DNA from: Planomonospora sp. ID82291
GTDB lineage: Bacteria; Actinomycetota; Actinomycetes; Streptosporangiales; Streptosporangiaceae
Reading direction: 5' to 3'
DNA length: 64,000 nt
Assembly (NCBI RefSeq): GCF_015711645.1
Contig: NZ_JABTEX010000009.1
Location: 62,001 to 126,000, forward strand
The position numbers were made by a program, and so were the translations under genes. The notes beneath the pieces were generated by a model. The model ran no database searches, had not been told where the DNA came from, and was given only the letters and a program-made list of their open reading frames with translations. Of the stretch, positions 12,801-33,563 are shown one piece after another (the first letter of the stretch is position 1; each line of letters begins with the position of its first letter).

Positions 12801-15237
12801 ACAGGTCGCCCGGGACGCCGGCGGGCAGCGGGCGGCCCGCGGCGTCCACGACGTGGCACTCGACGCCGGGCAGCGGGCGGCCCAGCGGGACCGAGCCCGG
12901 ACCCGGCGGCCCGTCGGGCACCCGGCCGCCCAGCACCGAGACGGTCGCCTCCGTCGGCCCGCAGTGGATCTGCACCTCCAGGTCGGGCCGGGCCGCGCGG
13001 ACGCGCCCGGCCAGCTCCCACGACGTCGCCTCGCCGGCCAGGATCAGCAGCCGGCGCGGGAGCACCCGGGCCAGGTCGCCGTGGGCGGCCAGCAGCTCCA
13101 GGTGGCTGGGCACCATCTTGACCACGTCGACGGCGTGCGCCGCCAGGTGGGCGGCGTAGGCCTCCGGGTCGGTGGCGGCCTCCTGGTCGACGAAGTGCAC
13201 CGCGGCGCCCCGGGTGAGCGCGCCGTACAGGCAGGTCATGACCAGGTCGGAGGCGATCGTGGAGACCACGCCGTAGGAGGCGTGGACGTCGGGCACCAGC
13301 TCGGCCACGCCGTGCAGGTAGTGCAGCGCGGCGCGGTGCTCGATCCCGACGCCCTTGGGCCGCCCGGTGGAGCCCGACGTGAAGATCACGTGGACCAGGT
13401 GGCCGGGGGTGACCTCGACCTCCACCGGCTCGTCGGGCCCGGCGGCCAGCAGGTCCGGTAGGACCAGCGTGCCGGGGACCCGGCCGGCGTGCTCGCGGTC
13501 GGCCAGCACGATCCGCGCGCCGGCCGTCTCCACCATGTACGCGAGGCGGTCGTCGGGGTAGGCGGGCTCCATCGGCAGGTAGGCGCCGCCCGCCCGCAGC
13601 ACGCCCAGCAGCGCCGGCACCAGGCCGGTGTGCCGGCCGGCCAGCACGCCGACCGGCTCGTCCGGCCGCACCCCGGCCGCGACGAGGTGGCGGGCCAGCC
13701 GGTTCGCCAGCCGGTCCGCCTCGCCGTAGGTGAGCGACCCGGCGGCGTCCACCGCGGCCACCGCCTCCGGCGCACTCCGGATCCGGTCGCCGATCACCGC
13801 GTGCAGCGGGTGCGACAGGTCCATCGCGATGCGCGGGCCCGCGGCGACGGGCCCGGTCACCGGCTCCAGCGGCACGGCCGCCGCCGGGGCGTCCAGGTCG
13901 GCGAGCACGCCCTCCAGCAGGGTCAGGTACCAGCCGGTGACGCGCCGCGCGGTCGCCTCGTCGAACAGGTCGGTGCGGTAGGTCAGCTCGCCGTCGTAGG
14001 CCTCGCCGTCGTTGACGAAGGCCAGGTTCAGGTCGTATTTGGCGGTGCGCGGCGCGACCTGCACGGGTTCGGCGGTCAGGCCGGGGAAGGCCGGCGGCTG
14101 CGGACGGTCGTCCAGGACGTTGAGCAGCACCTGGAAGACCGGTGTGACGGCGAGGCTCCGCTCGGGGTGCAGCCGCTCCACGATCCTCTCGAAGGGCACG
14201 TCCCGGTGGGTGAGCGCGTCCAGCACGGCGTCCCTGGTCCGGGTCAGCAGCTCCCGGCCGGTCGGCTCGCCGGACCGGTCGCCGCGCAGCACGAGCGTGT
14301 TGACGAAGCAGCCGAGCATGCCCGCGGCGCCGGGGTGCAGCCGCCCCGCCTCGGGCACGCCGACCGGCACGTCGTCGGTGCCGGAGATCCGGCCCAGCAG
14401 CTCCTGCCAGGCGGCCAGCAGCACCATGAACGGCGTGCATCCGGTCGCGGCGGCGGCCTCGCGGACCCGGGCGGTCAGCGCGGGCGCCAGCCGTACCGGG
14501 ACGGTGGCGCCCGACCAGTCGGCGACCGAGGGCCGGGGCCGGTCCACCGGCAGGTCCAGGACCGGTTCCAGCCCCGCCAGGCGCCCGGTCCACCAGTCCA
14601 GGTCGCCCTCCGGCCGCCCGGCCAGCCACGCCGCGTAGTCGGCGTACTGCGCCCGCGGCGGCGCGGGCGGCTGCGCCAGGCCGAGCCGGGCCGTGTACAG
14701 GGCGGCCAGCTCGGCCAGCGCGAGGTTGCGCGACCAGGCGTCGAAGGCGATGTGGTGCACGGTCAGCGCCAGCACGTGCTCGTCGCCGCCGGGCAGGCGC
14801 AGCAGCAGGGCGCGGGCGGGCGGCTCGGCGTCCAGCGCGAACGGGCGGGCGAGCTCCTCCTGCAGCCGCGCCTCCAGCGCTGCGGGGTCGTCGAGGTCCT
14901 CGACCGCGACCGGGACCCGTCCGGGATCCACCGGGACGGCGCCCTCGCCGGTGACCAGGCTGCGCAGCACCTCGTGCCGTTCGGCCAGGTCGCGCACGGC
15001 GCCCAGCAGCGCGGCGGTGTCCAGCGGGCCGCGCAGCCGCAGCGCGGCGGGCACGTTGTAGGCGGCCAGGTCGTCGAGCTGGGAGAGGAACCACAGCCGC
15101 GCCTGGGCGGGGGACAGGGGAGCGGGGCCGCCGGCCGCCCGCCGGAGGGGGAGCTCCGGGGCCGCCTGGGCGGCGGCGCGGCGCGCCGCCGACAGCCGGG
15201 CCGCCAGGGCGTCGCGGCGTTCGTCGCTGACGGTCAT
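9895..15237 (-). CDS. NRPS module C-A-PCP-TE fused to MFS exporter
   Basis: 1780 aa. Order: condensation domain ~30-450 (HHIAFDA near residue 160; the usual final Gly of HHxxxDG is Ala), adenylation ~475-900 (TSGSTGRPKG near 622, YRTGD, GKVDRARLP), carrier domain with phosphopantetheine Ser in LGGDS near 1006, thioesterase ~1080-1310, then a 10-12 helix MFS_3 (EntS-like) domain ~1330-1745. The thioesterase elbow reads GHCVG, giving a Cys nucleophile (Cys1138) in place of Ser, with GDRD and AGHYFLKH for the remaining catalytic residues. It should add the last residue, release the product and export it. ATG overlaps the stop of the repeat-built mini-ORF upstream. The amino acid specificity was not determined. 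Confidence 0.88.
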   Translation of the reverse strand: MTVSDERRDALAARLSAARRAAAQAAPELPLRRAAGGPAPLSPAQARLWFLSQLDDLAAYNVPAALRLRGPLDTAALLGAVRDLAERHEVLRSLVTGEGAVPVDPGRVPVAVEDLDDPAALEARLQEELARPFALDAEPPARALLLRLPGGDEHVLALTVHHIAFDAWSRNLALAELAALYTARLGLAQPPAPPRAQYADYAAWLAGRPEGDLDWWTGRLAGLEPVLDLPVDRPRPSVADWSGATVPVRLAPALTARVREAAAATGCTPFMVLLAAWQELLGRISGTDDVPVGVPEAGRLHPGAAGMLGCFVNTLVLRGDRSGEPTGRELLTRTRDAVLDALTHRDVPFERIVERLHPERSLAVTPVFQVLLNVLDDRPQPPAFPGLTAEPVQVAPRTAKYDLNLAFVNDGEAYDGELTYRTDLFDEATARRVTGWYLTLLEGVLADLDAPAAAVPLEPVTGPVAAGPRIAMDLSHPLHAVIGDRIRSAPEAVAAVDAAGSLTYGEADRLANRLARHLVAAGVRPDEPVGVLAGRHTGLVPALLGVLRAGGAYLPMEPAYPDDRLAYMVETAGARIVLADREHAGRVPGTLVLPDLLAAGPDEPVEVEVTPGHLVHVIFTSGSTGRPKGVGIEHRAALHYLHGVAELVPDVHASYGVVSTIASDLVMTCLYGALTRGAAVHFVDQEAATDPEAYAAHLAAHAVDVVKMVPSHLELLAAHGDLARVLPRRLLILAGEATSWELAGRVRAARPDLEVQIHCGPTEATVSVLGGRVPDGPPGPGSVPLGRPLPGVECHVVDAAGRPLPAGVPGDLWVAGPNLARGYLNRPDLTDERFVPDPVTGTGRCYRTGDRVRLNSAGLVEFLGRVDDQVKIRGFRVELGEVKAALQEQPGVGEAAVLPVGEGRSRRLAAWVAPASVDLAAVRAGLRGRLPDYMVPPVITVLDELPLTPLGKVDRARLPLPEAAPAAGRVAPSRPAELRIAAVWAEVLGVAEIGVDDDFFALGGDSFRAVRAVREIDPALRVIDLFTRPTVRELAAHLDGGAASAGAEAGLLHRLAGPRAASRTVVCLPYGGGSAAAYRPLAAELARTSPGTAVLAVELPGHDPARPGEALLSLPELAGRIAAELDGVSGPIALYGHCVGSAAATEVALRLEAAGRQVAGVFVGGGFPDARLPGRLSAWWNRRFPAHRWASDRTQRDFLRMLGALDEDFGDTEVMLRGLRHDVQEAQSWFSRRLDTASGEERRLTAPLLCVIGDRDRATELYQERHREWGAFADRVELAVISRAGHYFLKHQARELALLVDGHLDRWAGGDLPEPVGEVEVAGRGARRDLRRFYTVAAGQTVSLLGAALTSFALGVWAYQESGRVLDYALVTMLALLPSLLAAPLGGAVADRVDRRLVMLVCDGVSAAATAALVLLLWLGRLEVWQVGVIAGLLSLVSAFHRPAYLAAVAQLVPKPYLMQANALANLGTGLGMLVGPLGGAALITLVGLHGVVAVNIATFLAGLGTLLLVRFPDRLFHRLEESFGQAIAGGWRFLVRRRPLMIMIGFFVVENYLGMLALSVTVPAVLSFSDVTGVGLVTAMQGLGAVAGSLVMVFWGGTERRAVGMVGFVIGFGAGVLLVGLRPSLVLAAFGGLMSWAFLTVLNAHWLALIQLKVGLELQGRVLATNQMLAVSMTPLAFLTAPVLADDVFGPLLVPGGALADTVVGDVVGVGPGRGAGLLLAACGALLMLWGALGLWYRPLRRMEDALPDAVAGAEIAEDLDAVQAEADAVLLEGAGRAR

Positions 15238-15380
15238 GCGGTCTCCTTCGCCGGCCCCGCGACCGGGGCGTCGCCTCCGCTGACGGGCTCGGTCACGGGG
15301 TCTCCTCCACGTGGGCGAGGGCCGAGGGGTCCGGTCACGGGGTCTCCTCCACGTGGGTGAGGGCCGAGGGGTCCGGTCAC
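15234..15380 (-). CDS. 48-codon coupling mini-ORF between the NRPS genes
   Basis: The GTG at 15380 overlaps the stop of the upstream NRPS gene (GTGA), and its own stop overlaps the ATG of the downstream NRPS gene (ATGA). The 48-aa product contains two full and one partial copy of a 14-residue unit (VTGPLGPHPRGGDP) encoded by the 42-bp repeat, then AKETA at its end. Each repeat carries ggaggag followed by GTG. The most economical reading is a translational relay that carries ribosomes from the first NRPS gene to the second; whether the peptide itself does anything is unknown. Confidence 0.5.
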   Translation of the reverse strand: MTGPLGPHPRGGDPVTGPLGPRPRGGDPVTEPVSGGDAPVAGPAKETA

Positions 15381-15393
15381 GGGGTCTCCTCCA
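15291..15393. repeat. 42-bp tandem repeat at the NRPS gene junction
   Basis: Two full 42-bp copies (15301-15342 and 15343-15384, differing at one base) with partial copies on both sides. The unit is 14 codons and spans the stop of the first NRPS gene, so the duplication arose from its 3' end together with a ribosome-binding site. Confidence 0.85.
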
Positions 15394-18300
15394 GGTCGGC
15401 CAGAAGCAGGGCCTCCAGGCGCGCGGCGTAGTCGGACAGCGTCCGCCGTTCGAACAGCAGGCGCACGGGCACCCGCAGGCCCAGCGCGTCGCCCAGCCGG
15501 GCCGCCACGAGGGCGGCGGTCGCGGAGTGCCCGCCCAGCGCGAAGAAGTCGTCGTGCCTGCCCAGGCCGGAGCGGCCCAGCGCGGCGGACCACACCTCGG
15601 CCACCAGCAGCTCCGCCTCCGTCTCCGGCGGCGCCGGCGGCGCCTGCCCGGAGGGGGCGGGCAGCGCGGCGCGGTCCACCTTGCCGGAGGCCGTGACGGG
15701 CAGGGCGTCCAGGACCACCCAGCGGCGGGGGATCATGAACTCGGGGAGCCGGGCCGCCAGGGAACGCTCCAGCTCGCCGGTGTCGATCCCCCGCGGCGCG
15801 GCGAGGTGACCGACCAGGTGGTCGCCGCCGTGCACGGTCACGGCCGCGTCGGCCACGTGCTCGCGGAGCGCGGCCTCGATCTCGCCCGGCTCGATCCGGT
15901 GGCCGCGGACCTTCACCTGCAGGTCCCGGCGGCCGAGGAAGTCGAGCGTGCCGTCGGGCCGCCAGCGGGCCAGGTCGCCGGTGCGGTAGCGGCGCCCGCC
16001 CCGGGGGTCCAGGGGGTCGTCGGTGAAGGCCGTGGCGGTCTGCTCCGGCCGGCCGCGGTAGCCGCGGGCCACGCCGGCGCCGCCGATCCACAGCTCGCCG
16101 GTCACCCCGGCGGGCAGCAGGCGGCCCGCCCGGTCCAGGACGTAGGCCCGCTCGCCGGCCAGCGGCGTGCCGATCGGCACCCGGTCGCCGACCGGGGCGG
16201 TGACCCGGGCCATGGTGGAGTAGACGGTGGTCTCGGTGGGACCGTAGGCGTTCCACAGCTCGGCGGTCCGCTCCAGCAGATCACCGGCCAGGGCGGGGTC
16301 GAGCACCTCGCCGATGCCGACCACGCGCACGTCCCCGCCGCGCCAGCCGGAGGCGACCAGCATGCGCAGCGCCGTCGGGGTCGCGGTCATCAGCGTGACC
16401 CCGGCCTCCTCGATCCGCCGCGCCACGGCCCGCCCGTCGAGCACGTCGTCGCGGCCCAGCAGCTCCAGCCGGAGGCCGTGGCAGAGGCTCACCCACACGT
16501 CGAAGCCGAACACGTCGAAGGAGAACGGTGTCAGGCCGAGCATCACGTCGTCCGGCCGGATCCCCGGGGCGACCCTCATCGAGGCGGTGAACGCGGCCAG
16601 GTTGGCGTGGGTGACCTCCACGCCCTTGGGGCTGCCGGTGGAGCCGGAGGTGTACAGGACGTAGGCGAGATCGCCGGGGTCCACCCGAGGCAGGCCGTCG
16701 GGCCCGGTCCCCGGCGGGTCGCCGGGTTCGGCCCGCTCCGGCGGGGACTGCGCCGAGGAGAGCCGGGACAGGTCGACGACGGTGCCGCCCAGCTCCCGGG
16801 CCGTCGCCAGGGCGCCGCCCGCCGCGGCGATCAGCTTGATCCCGGCGTCGCCGACCTGGTGGCGCAGGCGCAGGGGCGGGTGGCCGGGGTCGAGCGGGAC
16901 GTAGGCGGCCCCGGCGAGCAGCACGCCCAGCAGCGCCGCGGGCAGGTACCGGTCGCGGGGCAGGCACACGCCCACGCAGGCGCCCGCCGCCGCCGGGCCG
17001 AGCGCCGCGGCGACCCGCCGGGCCAGGCCCGCCAGCTCGCCGTAGGTCAGGACGCCGCCGGCGTCGGCGACCGCCGGGGCGTCCGCGCGCCGTACGGCCT
17101 GCTCCAGCACGGCCTCCACCACGGTCCGCGGCGCGTCCGCGGGCAGCGGCGCGCCGGTCCCCGCGGCCAGCAGCGCCGCCCGCTCCTCCGGGCCGGTCAC
17201 CTCGAACTCCGACAGCGGCCGGTCGGGACGGGCCGGCGCGTCCGTCAGCAGGCGGACCAGGCGGTCGGTGAGGACCTCGGCCCCGGCCCGGTCCAGGTGC
17301 TCCAGGTCGTACTCCACCTGGAGCTCGGGCCCGTCCGCGGTGGCGTTGACGTAGACGACCAGCGGCGCCTGGACCCCGCCCGTGCCCAGCTCGCCGACCA
17401 GGTCCACGCCGACGCCTCCGCGCTCCAGCGACAGGGGGACCTCCGGCGGCTGGACCGAGAGCGTGACGGGCGTCAGGATCGCACCGGGCGGGCGCTGCAC
17501 GCCCCCGGCGTCGGCCCGGTCCCGCGAGGGCAGCGCCCGGTGGTCCATCGCCCGGACGGTCACCGCTCCCGCGTGCCGTACCGCCTCGCGCAGCGACAGT
17601 CCGTCCGCCAGGCGCAGTCGCACCGGCAGCACGTCGACCAGCAGGCCGACCATGGCCTCCAGCCCGGGGTCGGCGCGGTCGGCCACGGCGGCGCCGAGGA
17701 GGACGTCGCGCCGGTCGGTCAGCCCGGCGACCAGCAGGCCGAGCACGGCCAGGTGGACGGCGAACGGGGTGGTGCCGCACTCGGCCGCGAGCTCGGCGAT
17801 CCGCGCGGTCGTCGCCGGGTCGAGCCGGCGCACCAGGCGTTCGCCGCGCAGCCGGCTGGGGCGGTCGTCGGCGCGGGGCAGCAGCTCGTACGGCGGGACC
17901 GCACCGGCGAGCTCCTCGGCCCAGAAGTCCCGCAGCGCCCCGACGCCCGGTGCGGCGTTCGCCCCGGTGTCCGGTGCGGTGTCCGGCCCGGTGCCCGGTG
18001 CGGTGTCCGGCCCGGTGTCCGGCCCGGTGTCCGGCCCGGCCGCCTGCTCGCGCAGCGCGGCGTCGCCCAGCTGGAACGGCGGATCGGCGATGTCGCCGGA
18101 GCCGGTGAGCCCGTCGAGGAGCTCCCGCATGACGATCCCCAGCGACCAGCCGTCGAACGCGGTGTGGTCGGTGAGGAGCACCAGCTCCGCGCTGTCCGGC
18201 CCCGACCACAGCAGGGTGGCCCGCAGCAGTGGCGACTCCCGGGAGACGTCGAAGTCGTGGGCGACGGCGGCCCGGCGCAGCCGGTCGGCCTCCTCCGCCG

Positions 18301-20464
18301 AGGCCGGGCGGTGCTCGGTCAGCGGGACGGGGGAGGGCGGCCGGACCTCGCAGGTCCGGCCGTCCACGATGACGGAGCGCAGCGCCTCGTGGCGGCGCAC
18401 GACCGCGTCCAGCGCGGCCCGCAGCGGCCGGGCGGAGGCGAGGCCGCGCAACCCGAGCCGGAAGGCGATGGCGGTGGCGCCGGGGTTGTGGCTGACCTCG
18501 CGCAGCAGGTGCAGGCCGCGCTGGATGTCGGTCAGCGGGTAGCCGGTGCGCCCGGCGTGGCGCACCAGCGGTCGCACGGGGGCCGGGGCGGCCCCGGCGA
18601 CGTACGGCGCCAGCTCGGCGACCGTGGGCCGCGCCAGGAACGCCGTCAGCGGGACCCGGACCCCGAACGCGTGCTCGATCCCGGCGCAGATCCTGGCGGC
18701 GGCCAGCGAGTGCCCGCCCAGGTCGAGGAAGTGGTCGTGGACGCCGACCCGCTCGACGCCGAGCGCCTCGGCGGTGAGGTCGGCCAGGCGCCGCTCGGTC
18801 GCGTCGCGCGGGGCGGCGTATCCGGTTCCGGCCGCGAGGGCGGGGGATTCGGTGGGATCCGCGGCGGGGGATTCGGCGGGATCCGCGGCGGGATCCGCGG
18901 CGGGGGATTCGACGGGATCCGCGGCGGGATCCGCGGCGGGGGATTCGGCGGGGGATTCGGCGGCCGGTTCCGGGGAGGCGGCGGGGCCCGCCGCGGAGGA
19001 GAAAGCCACCGCGGGCAGCCGGGAGCGGTCGGCCTTGCCCGTGGGTCCCACGGGGATGGCGTCGAGGAACACGATCCTGGCGGGGATCATGTAGTCGGGC
19101 AGCCAGTCGCGCAGCCAGGACCGCAGCTCCCCGTCACCCAGGCCGGGACCGGACGGTTCGACGTAGGCGACCAGCCGCCGGGTGCCCTCCTCGTCGGTGG
19201 GGGCGAGCACGACGGCGTGGCGCACCAGCGGGTGGCGCACCAGCCTGCCCTGCACCTCGCCCAGCTCGACCCGGAACCCCGCGACCTTCACCTGGTCGTC
19301 GATCCGCCCCTCGTAGAAGTGGACCCCGCCCTCCCGGCGGACCAGGTCGCCGGTGCGGTAGTGGCGCACGCCCCCGGCGTCGGTGACGAACCGCTCGGCG
19401 GTCAGCTCGGGCCGGTTCAGGTAGCCCCGGCCGACCAGCGGACCGGCGACCCACAGCTCGCCGAGCTCGCCGTCGCCGAGCGCCCGGCCGTCGGCGTCGC
19501 GCACCGACAGCTCCGACCAGGCGTACGGCGTGCCGATCGGCGGTTCGCCCGTCCCGTCCCTGGCGATCTCGTGGGCGCAGCAGTGCACGGTGCACTCGGT
19601 CGGTCCGTACAGGTTCACCATGCGCCGCACGCCGGGGTTGGCGAAGACCCGGTCGGCCAGCGCCCGGCTCACCGGCTCGCCGCTGGACAGCACCGTGCGC
19701 ACGTTCGGGGGCAGCGGCTCCCGCAGCAGCGCGGTCAGCGCCGAGGCCGCCGCGCTGATCATCGTGACCTCGTCCCGGGCGGGCAGGGCGTGCAGCGCCA
19801 GGGGGTTCTCCGCCATGATCACCGTGCCGCCCAGCAGCAGGGGCAGGTAGAGCTGGGGGACGGACGGGTCGAAGCAGACCGAGGTCGAGGCGAGGAAGCC
19901 GGCCGTCTCCTCGGCGGTGAAGTGCCCGGAGTCCCAGCCCAGCAGCGCCATCACGCTGCGGTGCTCGATCACGACCCCCTTGGGGCGGCCGGTCGAGCCG
20001 GAGGTGTACATGACGTAGGCCCGATCGTCCGGGTCGCTCGGCAGGTCCAGGCCGTCGCACGGGCGGTCGCCGACCGACTCCACGAGGACGAGGTCGTGCT
20101 CCGGCAGCCGCCCGGCCAGCGCCGCGGAGGTCACCGTGTGCGAGATGCCGGCGTCCTCGACGACGAAGCCCAGGCGGTCGGCCGGGAAGGCGGTGTCCAG
20201 CGGGACGTAGGCGGCGCCGGTCTTCCAGACGCCCAGGAGCGCCGCGATCAGCGTCTCGTCGCGGTTCAGGAACACCCCGACGGCCGAGTCGCGTCCGACT
20301 CCCCGGGAGACGAGCTCGCGGGCGATCCGGTTGGCCAGGGCGTCGAGGTCGGCGTAGGTCGTGCGGGTCGTCCCGGTGACGACCGCGGTGTGCTGCGGAG
20401 TTCGTCGTACCTGCCGCTCGAAGGCCTTGTGGACCGGTTCGAGCAGCGCGCGGCTGCCAGCCAC
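15377..20464 (-). CDS. two-module NRPS, A-PCP-C-A-PCP
   Basis: 1695 aa from the GTG at 20464, chosen because aagaggaga lies 6 nt upstream; the frame is open further up. Order: A1 ~15-500 (YTSGSTGRPKG near 150), carrier 1 with LGGHS Ser near 586, condensation ~640-1065 with DHTAFDG near 765, A2 ~1115-1590 (YTSGSTGSPKG near 1270), carrier 2 with LGGHS near 1646. There is no N-terminal condensation domain, so A1-PCP1 is the starter module. With the downstream gene it gives a three-module line, suggesting a tripeptide-sized product if used once. No MbtH gene or tailoring enzyme is adjacent. Two interdomain linkers are tandem repeats. A-domain specificities are not called. Confidence 0.9.
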   Translation of the reverse strand: MAGSRALLEPVHKAFERQVRRTPQHTAVVTGTTRTTYADLDALANRIARELVSRGVGRDSAVGVFLNRDETLIAALLGVWKTGAAYVPLDTAFPADRLGFVVEDAGISHTVTSAALAGRLPEHDLVLVESVGDRPCDGLDLPSDPDDRAYVMYTSGSTGRPKGVVIEHRSVMALLGWDSGHFTAEETAGFLASTSVCFDPSVPQLYLPLLLGGTVIMAENPLALHALPARDEVTMISAAASALTALLREPLPPNVRTVLSSGEPVSRALADRVFANPGVRRMVNLYGPTECTVHCCAHEIARDGTGEPPIGTPYAWSELSVRDADGRALGDGELGELWVAGPLVGRGYLNRPELTAERFVTDAGGVRHYRTGDLVRREGGVHFYEGRIDDQVKVAGFRVELGEVQGRLVRHPLVRHAVVLAPTDEEGTRRLVAYVEPSGPGLGDGELRSWLRDWLPDYMIPARIVFLDAIPVGPTGKADRSRLPAVAFSSAAGPAASPEPAAESPAESPAADPAADPVESPAADPAADPAESPAADPTESPALAAGTGYAAPRDATERRLADLTAEALGVERVGVHDHFLDLGGHSLAAARICAGIEHAFGVRVPLTAFLARPTVAELAPYVAGAAPAPVRPLVRHAGRTGYPLTDIQRGLHLLREVSHNPGATAIAFRLGLRGLASARPLRAALDAVVRRHEALRSVIVDGRTCEVRPPSPVPLTEHRPASAEEADRLRRAAVAHDFDVSRESPLLRATLLWSGPDSAELVLLTDHTAFDGWSLGIVMRELLDGLTGSGDIADPPFQLGDAALREQAAGPDTGPDTGPDTAPGTGPDTAPDTGANAAPGVGALRDFWAEELAGAVPPYELLPRADDRPSRLRGERLVRRLDPATTARIAELAAECGTTPFAVHLAVLGLLVAGLTDRRDVLLGAAVADRADPGLEAMVGLLVDVLPVRLRLADGLSLREAVRHAGAVTVRAMDHRALPSRDRADAGGVQRPPGAILTPVTLSVQPPEVPLSLERGGVGVDLVGELGTGGVQAPLVVYVNATADGPELQVEYDLEHLDRAGAEVLTDRLVRLLTDAPARPDRPLSEFEVTGPEERAALLAAGTGAPLPADAPRTVVEAVLEQAVRRADAPAVADAGGVLTYGELAGLARRVAAALGPAAAGACVGVCLPRDRYLPAALLGVLLAGAAYVPLDPGHPPLRLRHQVGDAGIKLIAAAGGALATARELGGTVVDLSRLSSAQSPPERAEPGDPPGTGPDGLPRVDPGDLAYVLYTSGSTGSPKGVEVTHANLAAFTASMRVAPGIRPDDVMLGLTPFSFDVFGFDVWVSLCHGLRLELLGRDDVLDGRAVARRIEEAGVTLMTATPTALRMLVASGWRGGDVRVVGIGEVLDPALAGDLLERTAELWNAYGPTETTVYSTMARVTAPVGDRVPIGTPLAGERAYVLDRAGRLLPAGVTGELWIGGAGVARGYRGRPEQTATAFTDDPLDPRGGRRYRTGDLARWRPDGTLDFLGRRDLQVKVRGHRIEPGEIEAALREHVADAAVTVHGGDHLVGHLAAPRGIDTGELERSLAARLPEFMIPRRWVVLDALPVTASGKVDRAALPAPSGQAPPAPPETEAELLVAEVWSAALGRSGLGRHDDFFALGGHSATAALVAARLGDALGLRVPVRLLFERRTLSDYAARLEALLLADLEETP
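17944..18040. repeat. 12-bp repeats inside the condensation domain gene segment
   Basis: Tandem 12-bp units (ggtgtccggccc and variants) encode PDTG/PDTA tetrapeptide repeats in a surface insertion of the condensation domain of the first NRPS gene. They are in frame, so length variation would be tolerated. Confidence 0.75.
18840..18965. repeat. 15/30-bp repeats in the A1-PCP1 linker
   Basis: Tandem ~15-bp units (gcggcgggatcc, gcgggggattcg) encode a (A)ADPAADP/ESP-type linker between the first adenylation and carrier domains of the first NRPS gene. It forms a flexible Pro/Ala spacer, in frame throughout. Confidence 0.75.
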
Positions 20465-24363: not shown

Positions 24364-25728
24364 TCAGTCGGAGGCCACCCGGTGCTCGGCGAGGTGGGCC
24401 AGCACCGCCTGGTTGGCCTCCCACCCGTCGGGGAACTTCACCGGCACGCCCAGCTGCACCGGCTCCGCCGACGGATGGGCGTCCAGCAGCTCCGGGATGC
24501 CCGCCCGCGCCACCACGATGCACGCGTGCCGGTGCCGGGAGGTCAGCACGCACAGCCGCCCCGACTCCAGGTGGAACGCCGTGGCGTCGCGCCGCCCCGA
24601 CAGCGGGTGCAGCACGATCGTCACGTCGTACTCGCGCCCCTGCAGCCGGTTGGCGGTGTCCACCGTGATCTCCTCCGGCACCCCCGCCGCCCGGATCGCC
24701 GCCACCTGGTCGCGGTGCGCCGCCCCGATGGCGATCCGGTCGGCCGTCACCGGGTGGCTGCTGCGCTCGGAGTGCGCGACCGGCGCCCGCTGCAGCAGCC
24801 GTACGGCCAGCAGCGCCACCGCCCGCACCGCCTCGGCGTCGGTGCGGACCGTGTGCCGGCTCGGCAGCTCGTACAGCGCCCAGCCCGAACCCGCCGCCTC
24901 CTCCAGCGCCCGGTCGTAGGAGGTCCGCATGCCGTCCACCGTCAGCTCCAGCGACCGGTCGGCGCGACCGGTGCCCGCCCGGAAGCCGGTGAACGGGTAG
25001 AACGCCTCCGACACCACCGGCGCCGCCGACGCCGGCAGCCGCCACGACACCGGCAGCCGGTGCACCGGCAGGTCCGGGTTGTGCCGCAGCAGCACCGAGA
25101 CGGCGCTCTGCACCGGATCCCACGACAGTCCCGCCCACCGGTCGCCGTCCACGATCGAGAACGGGTCGAGCTGCCCCGGATCGCCCACGAACAGCGAGCG
25201 CTCGAACAGCGAGGCGATCCGCAGCAGCTTGTCCGAGCGCATCTGGTACGCCTCGTCCACGATCGCCCACGGCCAGGTCCGGTCGCCGACCCAGGCCCAC
25301 TTGTCGGCCGTGGCGATCACCACCGCCGGGTCGCCCAGGTCCGGCAGCTTGCCCGCCACCGAGACGTTGGGGTGCGCCAGGATCCGCTGCGGCGTGACGT
25401 ACCCGCTCGCCGACAGGCGGCCGACGGTCAGATCCGGATGGCCGGTCGCGAGCCGCTCCACCAGGTCGTCGACCTGCTCGTTGGTCTGCGCGACGATCAT
25501 CAGCGGCTCGCCGGTCTCCGCGATGTGCCCGGCGGCCCGCACCACCAGCGTCGACTTGCCCGCCCCCGGCGGGGAGTCCACGACGACGCCGCGGTGGCGC
25601 GGCAGGTCCGCCAGCACGCCCGCGACCACCCCCGCCGCCTCCTGCTGCGGGGTCAGCACCGACACCGGCACCCGCGGCCCGGCCGGGACCGGCTCCGGGG
25701 CCGGGTCCCGCACGACCTTGAGCGTCAC
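24364..25728 (-). CDS. SF1 (Upf1/DNA2-like) helicase
   Basis: 454 aa from the GTG at 25728, chosen because its GTGA overlaps the stop of the upstream gene and aggaggag sits 6 nt before it. Motifs in order: Q-like LTPQQEAA, Walker A SPPGAGKST (Lys near 58), Walker B/II AIVDEAYQM near 160, motif III FVGDPGQLDP, motif V TVDTANRLQGREYDVTIV and VI-like VLTSRHRHACIVV. This is the compact two-RecA core of the SF1B group, expected to translocate on DNA or RNA using ATP. It lacks the usual N-terminal accessory domains. It is the last gene of a coupled operon with a Cas4-like nuclease, so a nucleic-acid processing complex is likely. Confidence 0.85.
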   Translation of the reverse strand: MTLKVVRDPAPEPVPAGPRVPVSVLTPQQEAAGVVAGVLADLPRHRGVVVDSPPGAGKSTLVVRAAGHIAETGEPLMIVAQTNEQVDDLVERLATGHPDLTVGRLSASGYVTPQRILAHPNVSVAGKLPDLGDPAVVIATADKWAWVGDRTWPWAIVDEAYQMRSDKLLRIASLFERSLFVGDPGQLDPFSIVDGDRWAGLSWDPVQSAVSVLLRHNPDLPVHRLPVSWRLPASAAPVVSEAFYPFTGFRAGTGRADRSLELTVDGMRTSYDRALEEAAGSGWALYELPSRHTVRTDAEAVRAVALLAVRLLQRAPVAHSERSSHPVTADRIAIGAAHRDQVAAIRAAGVPEEITVDTANRLQGREYDVTIVLHPLSGRRDATAFHLESGRLCVLTSRHRHACIVVARAGIPELLDAHPSAEPVQLGVPVKFPDGWEANQAVLAHLAEHRVASD

Positions 25729-27257
25729 TCCCACTCCTCCTGCGCGTCGTCGTCACCGGGCACGTACTCCTCGGGCGGGCCGCCGTGGGTCCACGGCGTC
25801 TCCTCCGGGTCCGGGAGCGCCGCCGAGGTCTGGAAGTCGTCGGTCAGCGAGGTGTAGCAGACCCGCTCGCCCGGCTCGGGCACCGCCCCCGGGGCGGGCG
25901 TCTTCCCGCGCCCCATCCCCTTGGTCACCTTGAGCACGACCTCGACCGGGCCGCCGCCCGCCCCGCCCGCCCCGGCGCCGGACACCCCATCCGCCCCGGT
26001 GCCGGCCACCTCGACCACCTCGACCACCTCGGCGCCGTGGCCGCGCCGCTCCGGGCTGCCCACCGCCGCGCCCGGCGCCAGCCGTACCGGGTCGTCGGTG
26101 CGGACGGTGACCAGCGGCCGGAGCTTGCGCGAGCGGCCCTCGCCCTCGAAGTGCTCCGGCTCCACCGCCGTCACCACCCCGGCGAACGCCTCCCCGGTCA
26201 GCCGGTACTCCGCCATGACCAGCGGATCGTCGTAGGCCCGCTGCACGTCGTAGGAGGCCCGCGCCCGCTCCAGCCCCGCCAGCCGCGCCGCCGCGCCCAC
26301 CGCGCCGTCCCGGCGCGCCTGCGGCGGGCCGCCCTCGGCGATCCGCTCGACGAACCGGGTGAACGAGCCGCGGTCGGCCTCCCAGCGCCCGGCGACCCGC
26401 GAGCCCTCCGGCAGCGCGCGCAGCAGTTCCACCGAACGCCACATCAACCGCCACGTCGGCTCCAGCTGGGTGCGCAGCGCCTCGGCCACGCGCGCCACCG
26501 CCCGGTCCGTCGGCGCCTCCTCGTAGGCCTGCACGGCCGGGGCGAGCACCTCGTTGTCGAACCCCGGATCGGTGGCCGGCCCCGCCGGGGGCCACAGCAG
26601 CGGGTCCTCGGCCTCCTCGGCGGCCCGCTGCCCGGTCGTCCCGGCGGGCGGGTCGATCCAGCCCAGCAGCGCCGCCAGGTTCGCGTCCTCCAGCGCGCTC
26701 TGCCCGGTCGCCCAGTGCGCGCCCAGCGCCTCGGTCGCCGCCAGCAGCAGCGACGAGCCCGGCTGCCGCGACCGGTCGGCGAAGTAGGTCAGCCACCGGC
26801 CCAGCAGCGGCACCGACGGGTGCACCGGGTACGGGCCGTCGGCCCGCCGGAACCGGGTGGACCGGCCCAGCAGCCCGGTGAACTCCGCCGCCGGCCGGTT
26901 CGGCACCAACAGCTGCGGCGCCTCCAGGCACCGCTCGTACGGCTCGCCGCCCTTGCGCTCGACCGTCTCCGTCGCCTTCTGGAAACCCTCGACGTACGGC
27001 AGCAGCACCTCGGCCAGCTCGGCGGCGAACGCGAACCGCAGGTCCCGGTTGCGCGGCTGCGGCACCACCAGCAGCCGGGGGTGGTCCGGATCGGTGCCGA
27101 CCATCGCGCCGAGCGGGGCGGCGGCCTCACCGGCCATCTTCACCGGGACGAACACCATGGGGCGGTCGGAGACGTGGCAGTGCCGGACCGTGGTGATCCG
27201 CTGCGCCGTACCCTCCCGCATCGCCCGCAGCCGCGCCAGCGCGGTCAGCGCGCTCAT
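25725..27257 (-). CDS. uncharacterised 510-aa protein of the nuclease-helicase operon
   Basis: No family recognised. The N-terminal ~120 residues are mixed alpha/beta (RPMVFVPVKMAGE, RLLVVPQPRNRDL). The middle is mainly helical and Ala/Glu-rich. Residues ~360-480 look beta-rich: RLTGEAFAGVVTAVEPEHFE, KLRPLVTVRTDDP, PVEVVLKVTKGMGRG, ERVCYTSLTDDF, a pattern reminiscent of the OB/beta-barrel that precedes the core in Upf1-like helicases. I infer it may supply the missing accessory domains of the adjacent helicase. A Gly/Ala insertion (~415-435) is low complexity. ATG overlaps the stop of an 18-codon mini-ORF; its stop overlaps the helicase start. Confidence 0.75.
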   Translation of the reverse strand: MSALTALARLRAMREGTAQRITTVRHCHVSDRPMVFVPVKMAGEAAAPLGAMVGTDPDHPRLLVVPQPRNRDLRFAFAAELAEVLLPYVEGFQKATETVERKGGEPYERCLEAPQLLVPNRPAAEFTGLLGRSTRFRRADGPYPVHPSVPLLGRWLTYFADRSRQPGSSLLLAATEALGAHWATGQSALEDANLAALLGWIDPPAGTTGQRAAEEAEDPLLWPPAGPATDPGFDNEVLAPAVQAYEEAPTDRAVARVAEALRTQLEPTWRLMWRSVELLRALPEGSRVAGRWEADRGSFTRFVERIAEGGPPQARRDGAVGAAARLAGLERARASYDVQRAYDDPLVMAEYRLTGEAFAGVVTAVEPEHFEGEGRSRKLRPLVTVRTDDPVRLAPGAAVGSPERRGHGAEVVEVVEVAGTGADGVSGAGAGGAGGGPVEVVLKVTKGMGRGKTPAPGAVPEPGERVCYTSLTDDFQTSAALPDPEETPWTHGGPPEEYVPGDDDAQEEWE

Positions 27258-27310
27258 GCCGCGCCTCCCCGCGTCGCCCGCAGCCGCACCGGCGCGGTGA
27301 GCGCGCTCAT
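27254..27310 (-). CDS. 18-codon mini-ORF, duplicated start of the next gene
   Basis: ATG at 27310 overlaps the nuclease stop (ATGA) and its TGA overlaps the ATG of the 510-aa gene. The peptide MSALTAPVRLRATRGGAA matches the first 18 residues of the next protein (MSALTALARLRAMREGTA) at 13 positions, so the segment is a ~54-bp tandem duplication of that gene's start. It may simply relay ribosomes. Peptide function is unknown. Confidence 0.5.
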   Translation of the reverse strand: MSALTAPVRLRATRGGAA

Positions 27311-28407
27311 GCCACGCACTCCCGGTGCAGGCGGTCCGCCAGGCGGAGCAGGCGGGAGATCTCCTCCTGGCCCTCGCCCGGCTCGCGCACGCCCTCGGCC
27401 AGTCCCAGCGCCTCGTCCATCCCGGACACGCCGCCGAGCTGGTCGCGGACCTGGCGGCCGAGCAGGTCCGTGGAGCCGCAGCCGCGCGCCTCGTCCCGGC
27501 AGAACATGCACAGGTCGCACGCCGCCAGGCAGTCCGGCGCGTACCGGGCCGGCACCCGGCGCAGCGCCTCGGCCAGCTCGCCCGCCGACCGCGTCGGCAC
27601 GCCGTCGGCGTCCGGCTCCAGGGAGAAGGTCAGCCCCTCCGGCAGGCCCTCCAGCAGCCGGTCCACCCGGGTCATCCGGGCCAGCTGCCGCCGGAGCACC
27701 GCCAGCTGCCGGCGCACGTCCACCAGCGAGGCCACCGGGCGGTTGGCGAAGTTCTCCGGGCAGACGAGCACCACGTCGTGGGAGACCAGCTCCGGGTCGT
27801 GCCCCAGCTCCTCCAGGAGCGCGCGCAGCGCCAGCACGTAGACCGCCGCCTGCCGCGCCGCCGCCGCCACCTTCTCCGGCTCGGCCTGCCCGTCGATCAC
27901 GGAGAACGACTTGATCTCCACGATGTGGAAGCGCCCGCCGAGCCGGAACGCCACCACGTCCGGCTCCAGGTAGGAGGTGTGCCCGGCGATCCGCAGGCTC
28001 AGCAGCGGATGGTCGTAGAAGACCGCGGAGTCCTCGCTCTCCCTCGCCGCCCGGTCGATCAGGGCCCGGGTGTGCGAGGCCCGCAGGTGGGAGCCGACGC
28101 TCTCCACGTCCCGGTAGCCGACCTGCTCGATCGGCAGCCCCATCAGCTCGCGCAGCAGCCGCAGCAGCTCGGCGCAGCCGTTCTCCTTGACCAGCGACTC
28201 GAAGACGTTCCCGCGGGTGATCGCGAACTGCGACTGGCCGAAGGGCGCGGGGAAGCCGACGTGCCGGGCCGCGGCGTCCTTGTCGACCCCGGCGGCGTCC
28301 AGCAGCGACCGCCGGGCGCACCCGGGGTTGGCCGCCAGCGCCGCGATGGCCCGCGCGTCGTGCGCGCGGGCCGGCACGGGCCCGCGCAGGTCGTCCAGCC
28401 GGCTCAC
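27307..28407 (-). CDS. Cas4/RecB-like PD-(D/E)XK nuclease with cysteine cluster
   Basis: 366 aa. The nuclease core is visible as EPDVVAF (Asp near 150) followed by HIVEIKSF (Glu near 165, Lys near 167) and the helical QAAVYVLALR, matching motifs II-III and the Q-helix of RecB/Cas4. Near residues 297-311 the sequence CLAACDLCMFCRDEARGC provides five cysteines, as in the Fe-S modules of Cas4 and AddB. I start at the GTG at 28407: ggagg is 6 nt upstream and GTGA overlaps the stop of a 24-codon ORF. It is expected to cut or resect DNA in concert with the helicase three reading frames downstream. No CRISPR genes are near. Confidence 0.78.
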   Translation of the reverse strand: MSRLDDLRGPVPARAHDARAIAALAANPGCARRSLLDAAGVDKDAAARHVGFPAPFGQSQFAITRGNVFESLVKENGCAELLRLLRELMGLPIEQVGYRDVESVGSHLRASHTRALIDRAARESEDSAVFYDHPLLSLRIAGHTSYLEPDVVAFRLGGRFHIVEIKSFSVIDGQAEPEKVAAAARQAAVYVLALRALLEELGHDPELVSHDVVLVCPENFANRPVASLVDVRRQLAVLRRQLARMTRVDRLLEGLPEGLTFSLEPDADGVPTRSAGELAEALRRVPARYAPDCLAACDLCMFCRDEARGCGSTDLLGRQVRDQLGGVSGMDEALGLAEGVREPGEGQEEISRLLRLADRLHRECVA

Positions 28408-28478
28408 CGCACGCCTCCGCAACAGCCGTGGAGGACGTTCCCGGAACGGTCCCAGAGGACCTCGTGATACCCGCTCAT
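28404..28478 (-). CDS. 24-aa coupled small ORF
   Basis: MSGYHEVLWDRSGNVLHGCC followed by GGVR and stop. Its ATG overlaps the TGA of the upstream coiled-coil gene by one base (TGATG) and its stop overlaps the GTG of the nuclease (GTGA). Perfect coupling at both ends and a non-repetitive sequence argue that it is translated. The vicinal Cys pair is notable next to a Cys-cluster nuclease. Too short to classify. Confidence 0.5.
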   Translation of the reverse strand: MSGYHEVLWDRSGNVLHGCCGGVR

Positions 28479-29332
28479 CAGCAGGCCCCCCTCAATGTGC
28501 TCAGTGCGGCCGCGCCGAACAGGCGCTCCACGTCGGTCAGCTGATCGCCCGCCCGGGCCGCCACCTCGGCCCGCTGGGCGGTGTCGGCGGGCAGGTGCAC
28601 CTCCAGTTCCGCCCGGGCCGCCCCGACCACGGTCGCCGGGTCGACCGGGCCGAACCCGCCCTCCACGGCCCCCGGGATGTTCTGCGCCATCCGCGAGAGC
28701 AGCCGCACCGCGCCCGGCGGCGGTTCGGCGAGCCGGGCCAGGTGCTCGGCGATGCGGGTCGCCGCGGTGAGGAAGTCGACCCGCGGGCTCAGCGGCCCCA
28801 CCACCCGCGCCTCCAGCGGCCAGGTGCTGGCGGCCAGCAGCCCGCGGGCGGGGGAGAGGCGGTCGGTCAGCGCCGCGCACAGGTAGTACGGCCGGGCGTA
28901 GGGGTCGCTGCGGAAGGACCGCTCCTCGTCCCGGCGGAGGCTGGACAGCTGGGGGCTGCGCAGCCCTCCGGCGAAGAACGCCTCGTTGACCGCGACGACC
29001 AGCTTGGCGGCGGTCGGCACCCCCAGCAGGAGCAGCGCCTGGTGCACCTGCTCCCGGATCGGCATCAGCGCCGCCCCGGCCTCGCGCGGGAGGGGGCCCG
29101 CCCCCTCGGGTCCCTCGGCGCTCCCGGGTCCCTCGGCTCTCCCGCGTCCCCCGGACTCCCCGGATTCCGCGGACTCCTCGGTGACGACCGCCTCGTCCCA
29201 GGCCCGCTCGGCCCGGCGCAGGTCGGCCCGCAGGAGGCGGGCCAGGGAGGTGTCGCGGGCCTTGACCGCCCGCCGCACCTCGGCGCGGAGCTCGGCGATC
29301 CGCCGCTCCAGCGCGTCCAGTGGTTCACTCAC
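28478..29332 (-). CDS. coiled-coil protein of the nuclease-helicase operon
   Basis: 284 aa, unknown family. Residues 1-50 are heptad-like and charged (LDALERRIAELRAEVRRAV, LLRADLRRAERAWDE), predicting a coiled coil. A Glu/Gly/Ser low-complexity segment follows, then a ~200-residue mostly helical domain. I chose the GTG at 29332 because the coiled coil begins there; no strong Shine-Dalgarno is visible. It is the first gene of the operon, divergent from the NYN RNase gene across an AT-rich ~100-bp promoter region. It could act as an oligomerisation or sensor subunit; this is inference. Confidence 0.65.
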   Translation of the reverse strand: MSEPLDALERRIAELRAEVRRAVKARDTSLARLLRADLRRAERAWDEAVVTEESAESGESGGRGRAEGPGSAEGPEGAGPLPREAGAALMPIREQVHQALLLLGVPTAAKLVVAVNEAFFAGGLRSPQLSSLRRDEERSFRSDPYARPYYLCAALTDRLSPARGLLAASTWPLEARVVGPLSPRVDFLTAATRIAEHLARLAEPPPGAVRLLSRMAQNIPGAVEGGFGPVDPATVVGAARAELEVHLPADTAQRAEVAARAGDQLTDVERLFGAAALSTLRGAC

Positions 29333-29436: not shown

Positions 29437-29895
29437 ATGCGCAACTTGTCGCAGGGGCGAACCGTCCACCTGCTGGACGTGGAGAACCTGGTAGGAGCCC
29501 CGCGCCCCGCCCTCGGCGAGGTCCTCACCATGATGCGCCTCTACCGCCGCCGCGTCCCCGCGGGCGGCATGGACCAGTACGTCGCCGCCGTCAACCACGG
29601 CGCCCTGCTCCCCGTCGGCCTCGCCCTGACCGGGATCCAGCTCCTGGTCCGCTCCGGCCGCGACGGCGCCGACGAGGCGCTGCGCGAGGTGATCCGCCTC
29701 GACCACCTGCACATCCGGTTCGAGCGCGTGGTCATCGGCTCCGGCGACGGGGCCTTCACCGACCTGGTCGACTGGCTCCGCGGCCGGGGCGTCCAGGTCG
29801 TCGTGGTCTCCCGCCCCGGCGCCCTCAGCCACCGGCTCCGCCGTACGGCAGGCCAGGTCATCTCCCTCGAACCGCCCCTGGACCTGGCGGCCTGA
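29437..29895 (+). CDS. NYN-domain RNase-like protein
   Basis: 152 aa. NYN/PIN-like fold: first acidic residue in VHLLDVENLVG (Asp14), DGADEALREVI in the middle, then VIGSGDGAFTDLVDWLRGRG and VQVVVVSR. NYN proteins are metal-dependent RNases, several involved in tRNA/rRNA decay or toxin-like roles. The ATG at 29437 has gaaagggg 6 nt upstream. It is divergent from the nuclease-helicase operon. A 224-bp fragment of this gene occurs again at 31943-32166 with four substitutions. Confidence 0.82.
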   Translation: MRNLSQGRTVHLLDVENLVGAPRPALGEVLTMMRLYRRRVPAGGMDQYVAAVNHGALLPVGLALTGIQLLVRSGRDGADEALREVIRLDHLHIRFERVVIGSGDGAFTDLVDWLRGRGVQVVVVSRPGALSHRLRRTAGQVISLEPPLDLAA

Positions 29896-31942: not shown

Positions 31943-32166
31943 GCCGACGAGGCGCTGCACGAGGTGATCCGCCTCGACCAGCTGCATATCCGGTTCGAGC
32001 GCGTGGTCATCGGCTCCGGCGACGGGGCCTTCACCGACCTGGTCGACCGGCTCCGCGGCCGGGGCGTCCAGGTCGTCGTGGTCTCCCGCCCCGGCGCCCT
32101 CAGCCACCGGCTCCGCCGTACGGCAGGCCAGGTCATCTCCCTCGAACCGCCCCTGGACCTGGCGGC
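31943..32166 (+). pseudogene. truncated copy of the NYN RNase gene
   Basis: 224 bp matching 29668-29891 with four base differences (about 98% identity), same orientation, missing the first half including the Asp14 region. The frame ends differently (one base lost near the stop), adding about ten unrelated residues. The copy lacks part of the active site, so it is a pseudogene. Such high identity means a recent duplication or recombination. Confidence 0.85.
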
Positions 32167-32346
32167 TGATCACTTCGCCTTCTACGTGAATTGGTGAGTC
32201 TCCTGTCGCAGAGTCATGATCGGCTTTACGCGGCGGTGGCCTAGGCAGGTCCGGGGTGTGAGCAGTGAGAGGGCTTTACGTGAGCTGATGTCCCCTTCGT
32301 CGCTTGCACCGGACAGTTCGGGCTGGTCAGGGTGCAACCCGCTGGG

Positions 32347-32793: not shown

Positions 32794-33372
32794 CGCCCTG
32801 ACGAGGCCGGAGCGCGCGTCAGCCGCCGGGACATCACGGCGGTCATCGCCCAGCGCACCCGCGATTCGGAACTGGCGGGCAGATGTTCGTAATCACGGAC
32901 CAGACGCCGGTGGAGCATCAAGGTGCCGTTGGTCTGCTCGACGACCCAGCGCTTCTCCTGGGGGACGGACCCCTGGTCGGCGGGGTTGCGTTGGACGATC
33001 TCCACGTCGATCCCCAGCCTGGCGCCATGGTCGACGACGGTCTTCTTGAGGCCCTGGTCGACCAGGGCCTTGGTCACCGTGCCGGAAGTCGTCGCGGCGA
33101 CCTTGTCCAGCAAGGCGGTCCCCGCGACGTTGTCGTGCGTCGAGGCGGCCAGCACGATCACCGCGATGACCAGGCCGAACACATCCACGGCCAGGCCCCT
33201 CTTGCGGCCTGGCGTCTTCTTCGCGGCGTCCCGGCCATTTGCCCTGGTGGCCGCTGACCGAGGGGTGCGCCGCCTTCCACGCGGTGATCACCGGCTCGAT
33301 CAGTGCCCACTGCTCGTCGGATACGTCGCTGCGGTACGGCTTGCGCTCGCTCACCGAGCCATCCCAGCACAT
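32790..33372 (-). pseudogene. broken IS5-family transposase
   Basis: The N-terminal piece is typical (SERKPYRSDVSDEQWALIEP, then AAHPSVSGHQGKW). The sequence then jumps, in another frame, to DAAKKTPGRKRGLAVDVFGL, VLAASTHDNVAG and the C-terminal VEQTNGTLMLHRRLVRDYE. About 100 codons including the first catalytic Asp are missing, and the two parts are out of frame, so the gene is dead by internal deletion. The likely original start is the GTG at 33354. Confidence 0.85.
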
Positions 33373-33563
33373 TCGAGGCCGTCACCGGCGGTAACGCTAC
33401 AAATCCAATCGATCGCACTGTGACATCAAAGACTTCGGCTCACATAAAGCCCTCTCATCGCCCCTACGAGGGGTCGCAACGCATGTTCGGCGTTGGGGCC
33501 GCCTCCGTTGACGATGCTCACGGCGGTCGACCGGCGGGCCGGGTCCCGCTGTCGCCATGGAGG

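What the first reader, a model, noticed from the sequence alone, without database searches (positions are those of the whole stretch)
24364..29332. Coupled four-gene nuclease-helicase operon resembling an undescribed defence module
Seen: coiled-coil protein, Cas4/RecB-like PD-(D/E)XK nuclease with a CX3CX2CX2CX6C cluster, a 510-aa orphan with a beta-rich C-terminus, and a stripped-down SF1 helicase, all joined by start-stop overlaps and two mini-ORFs. Known: helicase plus PD-(D/E)XK nuclease pairs occur in AddAB, Dna2, Cas4 and many phage-defence systems. Inference: the 510-aa protein may supply the accessory barrel the helicase lacks. There is no CRISPR or RecBCD context, and the neighbourhood (NYN RNase, IS element, partial duplications) looks like an accessory island.
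Basis: partly seen in the sequence, partly recalled or inferred. Interest (0 to 1): 0.78.

Follow-up and report, generated by a model that had tools for sequence, protein, structure and literature searches.

The report
Three-gene split DNA2-like helicase-nuclease operon
Four neighbouring genes of an actinobacterium most likely encode, in separate pieces, a DNA-unwinding-and-cutting machine that other organisms (including humans) make as one protein called DNA2, and extra copies of it sit beside known or predicted anti-plasmid and anti-virus systems in related bacteria.

Summary
The operon is real: minus-strand genes C (28478-29332), N (27307-28407), O (25725-27257) and H (24364-25734), in an order kept in many Actinobacteria. 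N has a RecB/Cas4-type nuclease site and an iron-staple-like cysteine set; H is a UPF1/DNA2-type motor core without a 1B domain. O, an orphan by sequence, models confidently as an exonuclease-like domain lacking DxE plus a stalk and barrel like the 1B of IGHMBP2 and SETX. N-O-H thus looks like DNA2 (or bacterial Bad/TM0106) split over three genes; sequence alone shows this only for H.

The window copy is no accessory island: relatives share its neighbourhood, and an O homologue is in 281 of 295 genomes of a genus taken to be Streptomyces. But the 19 extra copies examined there lie next to SbcCD genes (9) or PIWI-RE (10), four with Wadjet directly downstream. Best reading: a DNA-end-processing helicase-nuclease, probably housekeeping here and recruited into defence islands elsewhere. 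Function is inferred; nothing was assayed. New variant of a known kind.

The parts
28478..29332 (-). Gene C, 284 aa: N-terminal coiled coil (by eye; weak coiled-coil PDB matches), conserved C-terminal part with RRDE (invariant R133, R134, D135, E136), fold not modelled
   Evidence: best library match E 0.073. No C by tblastn in the 10 core-type loci of genus g83 read (L088, L089, L091-L094, L119-L122) nor in L075, L111-L118
28404..28478 (-). Mini-ORF 1 (24 aa) in the C/N junction, not conserved
27307..28407 (-). Gene N, 366 aa: RecB/Cas4-type PD-(D/E)XK nuclease with putative Fe-S cysteines
   Evidence: Model pLDDT 88.5; Cas4 Z 10.1, EXO5 8.1, Dna2 6.6; motifs
27958..27966 (-). N: E148-P-D150, nuclease motif
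   Evidence: E148 122/125, D150 120/125
27910..27918 (-). N: E164-I-K166, nuclease motif
   Evidence: 115/125 and 116/125
27499..27531 (-). N: C293-x3-C297-x5-C303; the fourth cysteine C30 lies at 28318-28320
   Evidence: 125/125 each; C30 114/114
27254..27310 (-). Mini-ORF 2 (18 aa), repeats the start of O; not conserved
25725..27257 (-). Gene O, 510 aa: exonuclease-like domain without DxE, then stalk and 1B-type barrel
   Evidence: Model pLDDT 89.9, pTM 0.87
26388..27173 (-). O residues 29-290: fold like B-family polymerase exonuclease / RNase T; no acid in residues 34-41
   Evidence: Z 10.1 and 8.2; DxE at residues 30-46 in 0 of 129
25791..26312 (-). O residues 316-489: stalk and 1B-type barrel
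   Evidence: IGHMBP2 Z 8.4, SETX 8.0, Sen1 7.8
24364..25734 (-). Gene H, 456 aa: SF1 UPF1/DNA2-type motor core (1A+2A), no room for 1B before motif I
   Evidence: hhalign to fused TM0106-type proteins E 1.3e-22
25552..25575 (-). H: motif I (SPPGAGKS)
   Evidence: GxGK[ST] in 123/123
25246..25257 (-). H: motif II (DEAY)
   Evidence: DE[AS] in 123/123

Best explanation
N, O and H are the separated parts of a DNA2-like helicase-nuclease: N cuts single-stranded DNA (RecB/Cas4-type site, probably held by an Fe-S staple), H is the SF1B motor core, and O gives the motor its missing stalk and 1B barrel and carries a dead exonuclease-like domain, probably a DNA guide or scaffold. C is an accessory subunit, perhaps a loader. 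The complex is expected to load at a DNA end or ss/ds junction, move 5' to 3' and cut the strand it handles, giving resection or degradation of ends. In the window's lineage it is a vertically kept chromosomal locus, most likely DNA-end processing or repair; extra copies have been joined to SbcCD (the bacterial Mre11-Rad50), Wadjet and PIWI-RE, where they would process or destroy the DNA that these systems open. Shown here: operon conservation, motifs, predicted folds, contexts. Inferred: complex formation, Fe-S cluster, polarity, substrate, cellular role.
For: Structure: O model pLDDT 89.9 with IGHMBP2, SETX and Sen1 matches, and Foldseek rank 3 for O is Aquarius, an SF1 helicase (4pj3, E 0.094); N model with Cas4, EXO5, MGME1, AdnA, AddB and Dna2. 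Sequence: H profile hits SMUBP-2 5.7e-13, DNA2 7.1e-10, UPF1 2e-9 and fused TM0106 proteins 1.3e-22 (4.6e-26 with 24 fused sequences). Nuclease and cysteine residues kept in N. Gene order nuclease, middle, motor equals the domain order of fused proteins (nuclease, RNase_H_2, AAA_11/AAA_12). Avoidance: of the same 150 family genomes 83 have O, 35 TIGR03491, 4 both (19.4 expected, Fisher p 2.0e-9; by genus 32, 21 and 3 shared of 68, 9.9 expected, p 4.6e-4). Context: SbcD/SbcC in 18 of 138 loci, in three (L057, L059, L062) starting within about 40 nt after H on the same strand; Wadjet in 9 of 138; PIWI-RE beside 10 extra copies. Precedent: Bad, a single-chain bacterial DNA2-like enzyme with iron, 5'-3' motor and ssDNA endonuclease (PMC7430649: abstract, section 14 and passages read).
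Against: O and N are not significantly similar to fused proteins by profile comparison (E 0.52 and 0.21; 0.034 and 0.01 with more sequences, where 20 comparisons were made and the N alignment is out of register). Foldseek gives no match for O at E 0.001 or less (best 0.018). Z of 7.8-8.4 for the barrel is middling; unrelated barrels (Ski7 7.5, a ribosomal protein 7.3, F1-ATPase 6.6) score little less. The avoidance test is not corrected for phylogeny. None of the 50 Streptosporangiaceae-type loci (L002-L048, L056, L063, L084) and none of 10 core-type g83 loci has SbcCD or Wadjet in the fetched flanks (tblastn at 1e-8 with references from L083, L085, L095). The host has one SbcD-like match, on another contig, 36% identical. 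In L068, L097 and L098 no H was found in the locus. C was not modelled. Nothing was assayed.
Confidence: 0.66

Rival explanations
1. C-N-O-H is itself a stand-alone anti-phage or anti-plasmid system, in all copies including the window's.
For: The 19 extra g83 copies examined sit by SbcCD or PIWI-RE, several with Wadjet; two named Streptomyces plasmids carry it beside Wadjet and SbcCD genes, the latter broken in L082.
Against: Fixed locus in the window's relatives; O homologue in 281 of 295 g83 genomes; core copies have no such neighbours; no PADLOC model fits.
Confidence: 0.22
2. A purely housekeeping repair or replication enzyme; closeness to defence systems reflects only shared islands.
For: Near-universal O homologue in g83; avoidance of the fused DNA2-like protein, as expected of functional substitutes.
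Against: sbcD directly after H in L057, L059 and L062, and SbcD/SbcC genes beside all seven best matches of the L095 clade in 295 genomes, argue for coupling; the close sisters L125 and L127 carry different Wadjet types in the same place.
Confidence: 0.3
3. An RNA or RNA-DNA hybrid helicase complex (UPF1/SETX-like), tied to the neighbouring NYN gene.
For: Barrel matches include SETX and Sen1; an NYN gene adjoins the operon in 11 relatives; PIWI-RE was proposed by its authors to involve R-loops (PMC3702460, abstract and passages read).
Against: NYN was found only in Planomonospora, Planobispora and Streptosporangium loci; N resembles DNA nucleases; SbcCD and Wadjet act on DNA.
Confidence: 0.1

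Closest known systems
Bad, bacterial DNA2-like helicase-nuclease of Geobacillus (PMC7430649), and eukaryotic DNA2
   Same: Iron-staple-type RecB nuclease plus SF1B motor; nuclease before motor. Bad lies by a methyltransferase gene, so its authors proposed a restriction role
   Different: Here three genes plus C; the middle protein adds an exonuclease-like fold; cysteines CX3CX5C; found here in Actinobacteria; linked to SbcCD, Wadjet and PIWI-RE
TM0106 family (TIGR03491): RecB-like nuclease / RNase_H_2 / AAA_11-AAA_12 in one chain
   Same: Same order: nuclease, RNase-H-like fold, motor; motor homologous to H
   Different: One chain of 1055-1243 aa in the 24 sequences used; D334 and E336 of its RNase_H_2 kept in 24 of 24, while O has DxE in 0 of 129; TIGR03491 does not match N, O or H
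Mre11-Rad50 (SbcCD) with DNA2 in end resection (recalled)
   Same: SbcD/SbcC genes adjoin C-N-O-H in 18 of 138 loci
   Different: No such neighbour in the window; cooperation is not shown
AddAB / AdnAB / RecBCD
   Same: RecB-type nuclease plus SF1 motor; N matches AdnA and AddB
   Different: H matches UPF1/DNA2-type models, no UvrD-type Pfam model at E up to 1

Membership tests
DNA2/Bad-type helicase-nuclease | RecB-family nuclease motifs with four iron-staple cysteines | tested here: met
   C30 114/114; C293, C297, C303 125/125; D150, E164, K166, Q186 in 115-120 of 125; Cas4, EXO5, Dna2 folds. The cluster itself is not shown
DNA2/Bad-type helicase-nuclease | SF1B motor core of the UPF1/DNA2 type | tested here: met
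DNA2/Bad-type helicase-nuclease | Stalk and 1B barrel | tested here: met
   In O, by predicted fold only, middling Z
DNA2/Bad-type helicase-nuclease | Nuclease and motor in one chain | tested here: not met
   Separate genes wherever N, O and H were called
DNA2/Bad-type helicase-nuclease | 5'-3' ssDNA motor and ssDNA endonuclease activity | not testable with these tools
   Needs biochemistry
TM0106 / TIGR03491 | Match to the family model | tested here: not met
   No match of N, O or H to it at E up to 1; none in the own genome
TM0106 / TIGR03491 | RNase_H_2 domain with D-x-E | tested here: not met
   DxE in 0 of 129 O proteins
Known anti-phage systems of PADLOC-DB 2.0.0 | Model match to the components | tested here: not met
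   none for N or O; C E 0.073; H best MkoA 1.4e-8, motor part only
AddAB/AdnAB/RecBCD | UvrD-type SF1A motor | tested here: not met
CRISPR Cas4 | cas1/cas2 neighbours | tested here: inconclusive
   None noticed by eye among flanking genes printed; no model search of all flanks

The most novel reading that the evidence does not exclude
SbcCD plus C-N-O-H is a bacterial counterpart of the Mre11-Rad50-DNA2 end-resection machine, built from a three-gene split DNA2, that Actinobacteria keep as a chromosomal enzyme and plug, as a common DNA-destruction unit, behind different sensors (Wadjet type I, Wadjet type II, PIWI-RE).
Probability: 0.33. Interest if true: 0.82.

Novelty: new variant of a known kind. 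Interest (0 to 1): 0.62.

Why it matters
A DNA2-type enzyme split over three genes would let nuclease, barrel and motor be tested apart, and would explain genes without a family name that most genomes of a large actinobacterial genus carry. The SbcCD / C-N-O-H / Wadjet blocks suggest what may happen to DNA after Wadjet cuts it, and one shared processing unit beside Wadjet and PIWI-RE would link two defence mechanisms.

Tried and rejected
Accessory-island reading of the window copy: rejected on synteny. Homology of N and O to fused TM0106 proteins by sequence: not significant or out of register, so not claimed. My notes first called the Wadjet of L095 'type III'; PADLOC names its genes JetA2/B2/C2, so it is written as type II; L125, L126 and L128 are called type II by similarity to L095 (62% for JetA). 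Wadjet as an obligate partner: rejected, as 106 of 295 g83 genomes have JetA2 (PF09660) and only three such genes (G440, G451, G604) directly adjoin C-N-O-H; others lie about 9 kb (G229), 12 kb (G658) and 16 kb (G589) away. Phages: no match in 50,697 records; IMG/VR: none of 29 pattern matches encodes a relative. PDB sequences: no match for O, only designed repeat proteins for N, weak coiled-coil matches for C. 9KWF, hit by H's profile, belongs to a paper on acidophile helicases (listing only), not followed. Of the Foldseek rows for O only 4pj3 is titled Aquarius in full; ranks 1, 2, 6 and 7 are long spliceosome chains that may be the same protein, which I did not check.

Papers: no description of this operon appeared in the listings (open-licence PMC only; some searches listed 15 of 579, 33 and 1,000 papers). 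Passages were read of PMC7430649 (also its section 14), PMC3702460, PMC10586767, PMC10482375 and PMC12624138.

Limits: genes in the loci come from my own simple GC-based caller (script, loaded from then on), which missed some genes; tblastn recovered C in 11 of 39 loci where no C had been called. Sequences dropped before counts: N under 320, O under 440, H under 400, C under 200 aa, or holding X. L149, a 864-aa call, was left out of the fused set. Names such as GNAT, TetR and histidine phosphatase for flanking genes are by eye. Loci from L085 on were chosen for diversity of O or as extra copies, so the 18 and 9 of 138 are not population frequencies.
Full report
What is there. Four minus-strand genes lie at 24364-29332: C (284 aa), N (366 aa), O (510 aa) and H (456 aa), in transcription order C-N-O-H. 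tblastn of the window proteins against 80 loci of public genomes finds the same order again and again, with gaps where a contig ends or genes are inserted. Of 137 loci in which an operon gene was called, all four were called in 87, always on one strand; N-O and O-H junctions overlap by 4 nt at the median, C-N is 33 nt apart. The two mini-ORFs are local: the second repeats the start of O, and the Planomonospora relative L003 carries several repeats of that junction. The nearest relative fetched, Planomonospora parontospora (L002), has O 95% identical.

N. Sequence libraries give only a sub-threshold PDDEXK_1 match (E 0.087). The alignment shows E148-P-D150, E164-I-K166 and Q186xxxY190. The model (pLDDT 88.5) aligns with Cas4 (Z 10.1, 192 residues, model 10-309), lambda exonuclease, RecB, EXO5, AdnA, AddB and Dna2 (Z 6.6, 195 residues); Foldseek's best is MGME1 at 9.9e-4. 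This resembles the iron-staple nuclease type described for AddB, DNA2, Cas4 and Bad (PMC7430649, section 14 read).

H. Pfam AAA_30, AAA_11, AAA_12 and AAA_19 match above their cut-offs. A profile of 29 sequences hits SMUBP-2, DNA2 and UPF1 structures (5.7e-13, 7.1e-10, 2e-9). Motif I starts near residue 54, so there is no room before it for a stalk and 1B domain.

O. No match in Pfam, NCBIfam or PADLOC at E up to 1 or in PDB sequences. The model has pLDDT 89.9 and pTM 0.87. Its N-terminal part (29-290) aligns with exonuclease domains of B-family polymerases (Z up to 10.1) and RNase T (Z 8.2); its C-terminal part aligns with IGHMBP2 (316-489 on chain residues 5-159, Z 8.4, 129 residues, rmsd 4.6), SETX (351-472, Z 8.0) and Sen1 (Z 7.8), with other barrels (Ski7 7.5, a ribosomal protein 7.3) close behind. 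Foldseek has no E of 0.001 or less; rank 3 is Aquarius (4pj3, E 0.094). That these stretches are the stalk and 1B of those helicases is my knowledge of their structures. The exonuclease DxE is absent: no acid at residues 34-41 in 128 sequences, no DxE at 30-46 in 129. O therefore looks like a dead exonuclease-like domain fused to the part that H lacks.

Single-chain relatives. TIGR03491 (TM0106) proteins carry RecB-type nuclease, RNase_H_2, then AAA_11/AAA_12 in one chain. H matches their motor (E 1.3e-22; 4.6e-26 with 24 sequences); N and O do not match significantly, and the best N alignment is out of register. In the same 150 family genomes O occurs in 83, TIGR03491 in 35 and both in 4 (19.4 expected); two of the four O matches are weak fragments (E 1.6e-5 and 2.9e-5) and one is the distant 34% form. 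This suggests substitution but is not corrected for phylogeny.

Distribution. O is found in 83 of 150 genomes of the family, 58 of 296 of the class and 281 of 295 of genus g83, which I take to be Streptomyces (see limits). In Planomonospora, Planobispora, Streptosporangium, Nonomuraea and Sphaerisporangium flanking genes are shared (clusters c6, GNAT by eye, in 41 and c5, TetR by eye, in 42 of 80 loci). Ten core-type g83 loci were read (L088, L089, L091-L094, L119-L122): a histidine-phosphatase-like gene (by eye) lies nearby in 10 of 10 and a small conserved gene in 8 of 10; N was not called in L088; C was found in none by tblastn.

Defence links. Two named Streptomyces plasmids show SbcD/SbcC genes, then C-N-O-H, then JetABCD (in L082 the SbcCD genes are broken). 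In g83 the seven best matches to O of L095 all have SbcD or SbcD and SbcC beside them (only an SbcD piece in L125), and four have Wadjet within about 300 nt downstream of H: type II in L125, L126, L128, type I in L127; L129-L131 show none in the stretch fetched. L125 and L127 are close sisters on the O tree yet carry different Wadjet types, so the Wadjet part seems to be exchanged. In L057, L059 and L062 an sbcD gene starts within about 40 nt after H on the same strand. Outside g83, L095 (Wadjet type II), L105 (type I) and L110 have SbcCD and Wadjet genes, L099 SbcCD. Ten further g83 copies adjoin PIWI-RE genes: the L087 partners match PprPDDEXK (2.7e-104) and PprDinG (3.5e-257), and a PF18155 place lies about 5 kb from O in all ten. 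Two more copies (L085, L086) have SbcCD. Thus 19 of 19 extra g83 copies examined lie by SbcCD genes (9) or PIWI-RE (10); the match list was cut off, so more may exist. Over all 138 loci SbcD/SbcC was found in 18 and Wadjet in 9; in none of 50 Streptosporangiaceae-type loci and none of the ten core-type g83 loci. In the other direction the link is loose: 10 of 55 PF18155 places, and three JetA2 genes among those of 106 genomes.

Interpretation. The simplest reading is a DNA2-like helicase-nuclease divided over three genes, with an accessory C. In the window's lineage it is a stable chromosomal locus, so DNA-end processing is the likelier role there; the recruited copies probably process DNA opened by SbcCD, Wadjet or PIWI-RE. 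Complex formation, polarity, Fe-S cluster and function are untested.

Noticed in passing
window 9895-20464: Two very large NRPS-like genes (1780 and 1695 aa; by eye) lie between an MFS gene and the GNAT-like gene that is otherwise close to the operon in relatives, so a biosynthetic insertion is possible.
   Followed up: no
window 29437-29895 and 31964-32197: An NYN-domain gene diverges from the operon in 11 relatives as well, and a C-terminal fragment of it is repeated near an IS-like stretch at about 32900-33400.
   Followed up: partly
L003, stretch before 10001: Tandem copies of a roughly 70-bp unit carrying the ribosome-binding region and start of O; L002 has two longer copies.
   Followed up: partly
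L050 11577-13919; L054 11509-20407; L030 11534-13105: Genes inserted between O and H: a DUF262-like gene by eye (L050), about 9 kb with gas-vesicle-like genes by eye (L054), a reversed gene (L030).
   Followed up: no
L068, L097 and L098: N-O pairs with no H found in the locus; L097 and L098 also lack C.
   Followed up: partly
L050, L062, L064, L073: An SMC-like ATPase gene (819 aa in L050) lies upstream of C in these Micromonosporaceae; the L050 protein has mad3/LmuB-like PADLOC matches.
   Followed up: partly
L130 (G507:C1:1-20000): An SbcCD / C-N-O-H block lies within the first 10 kb of an 8.3-Mb contig, perhaps near a linear chromosome end.
   Followed up: no
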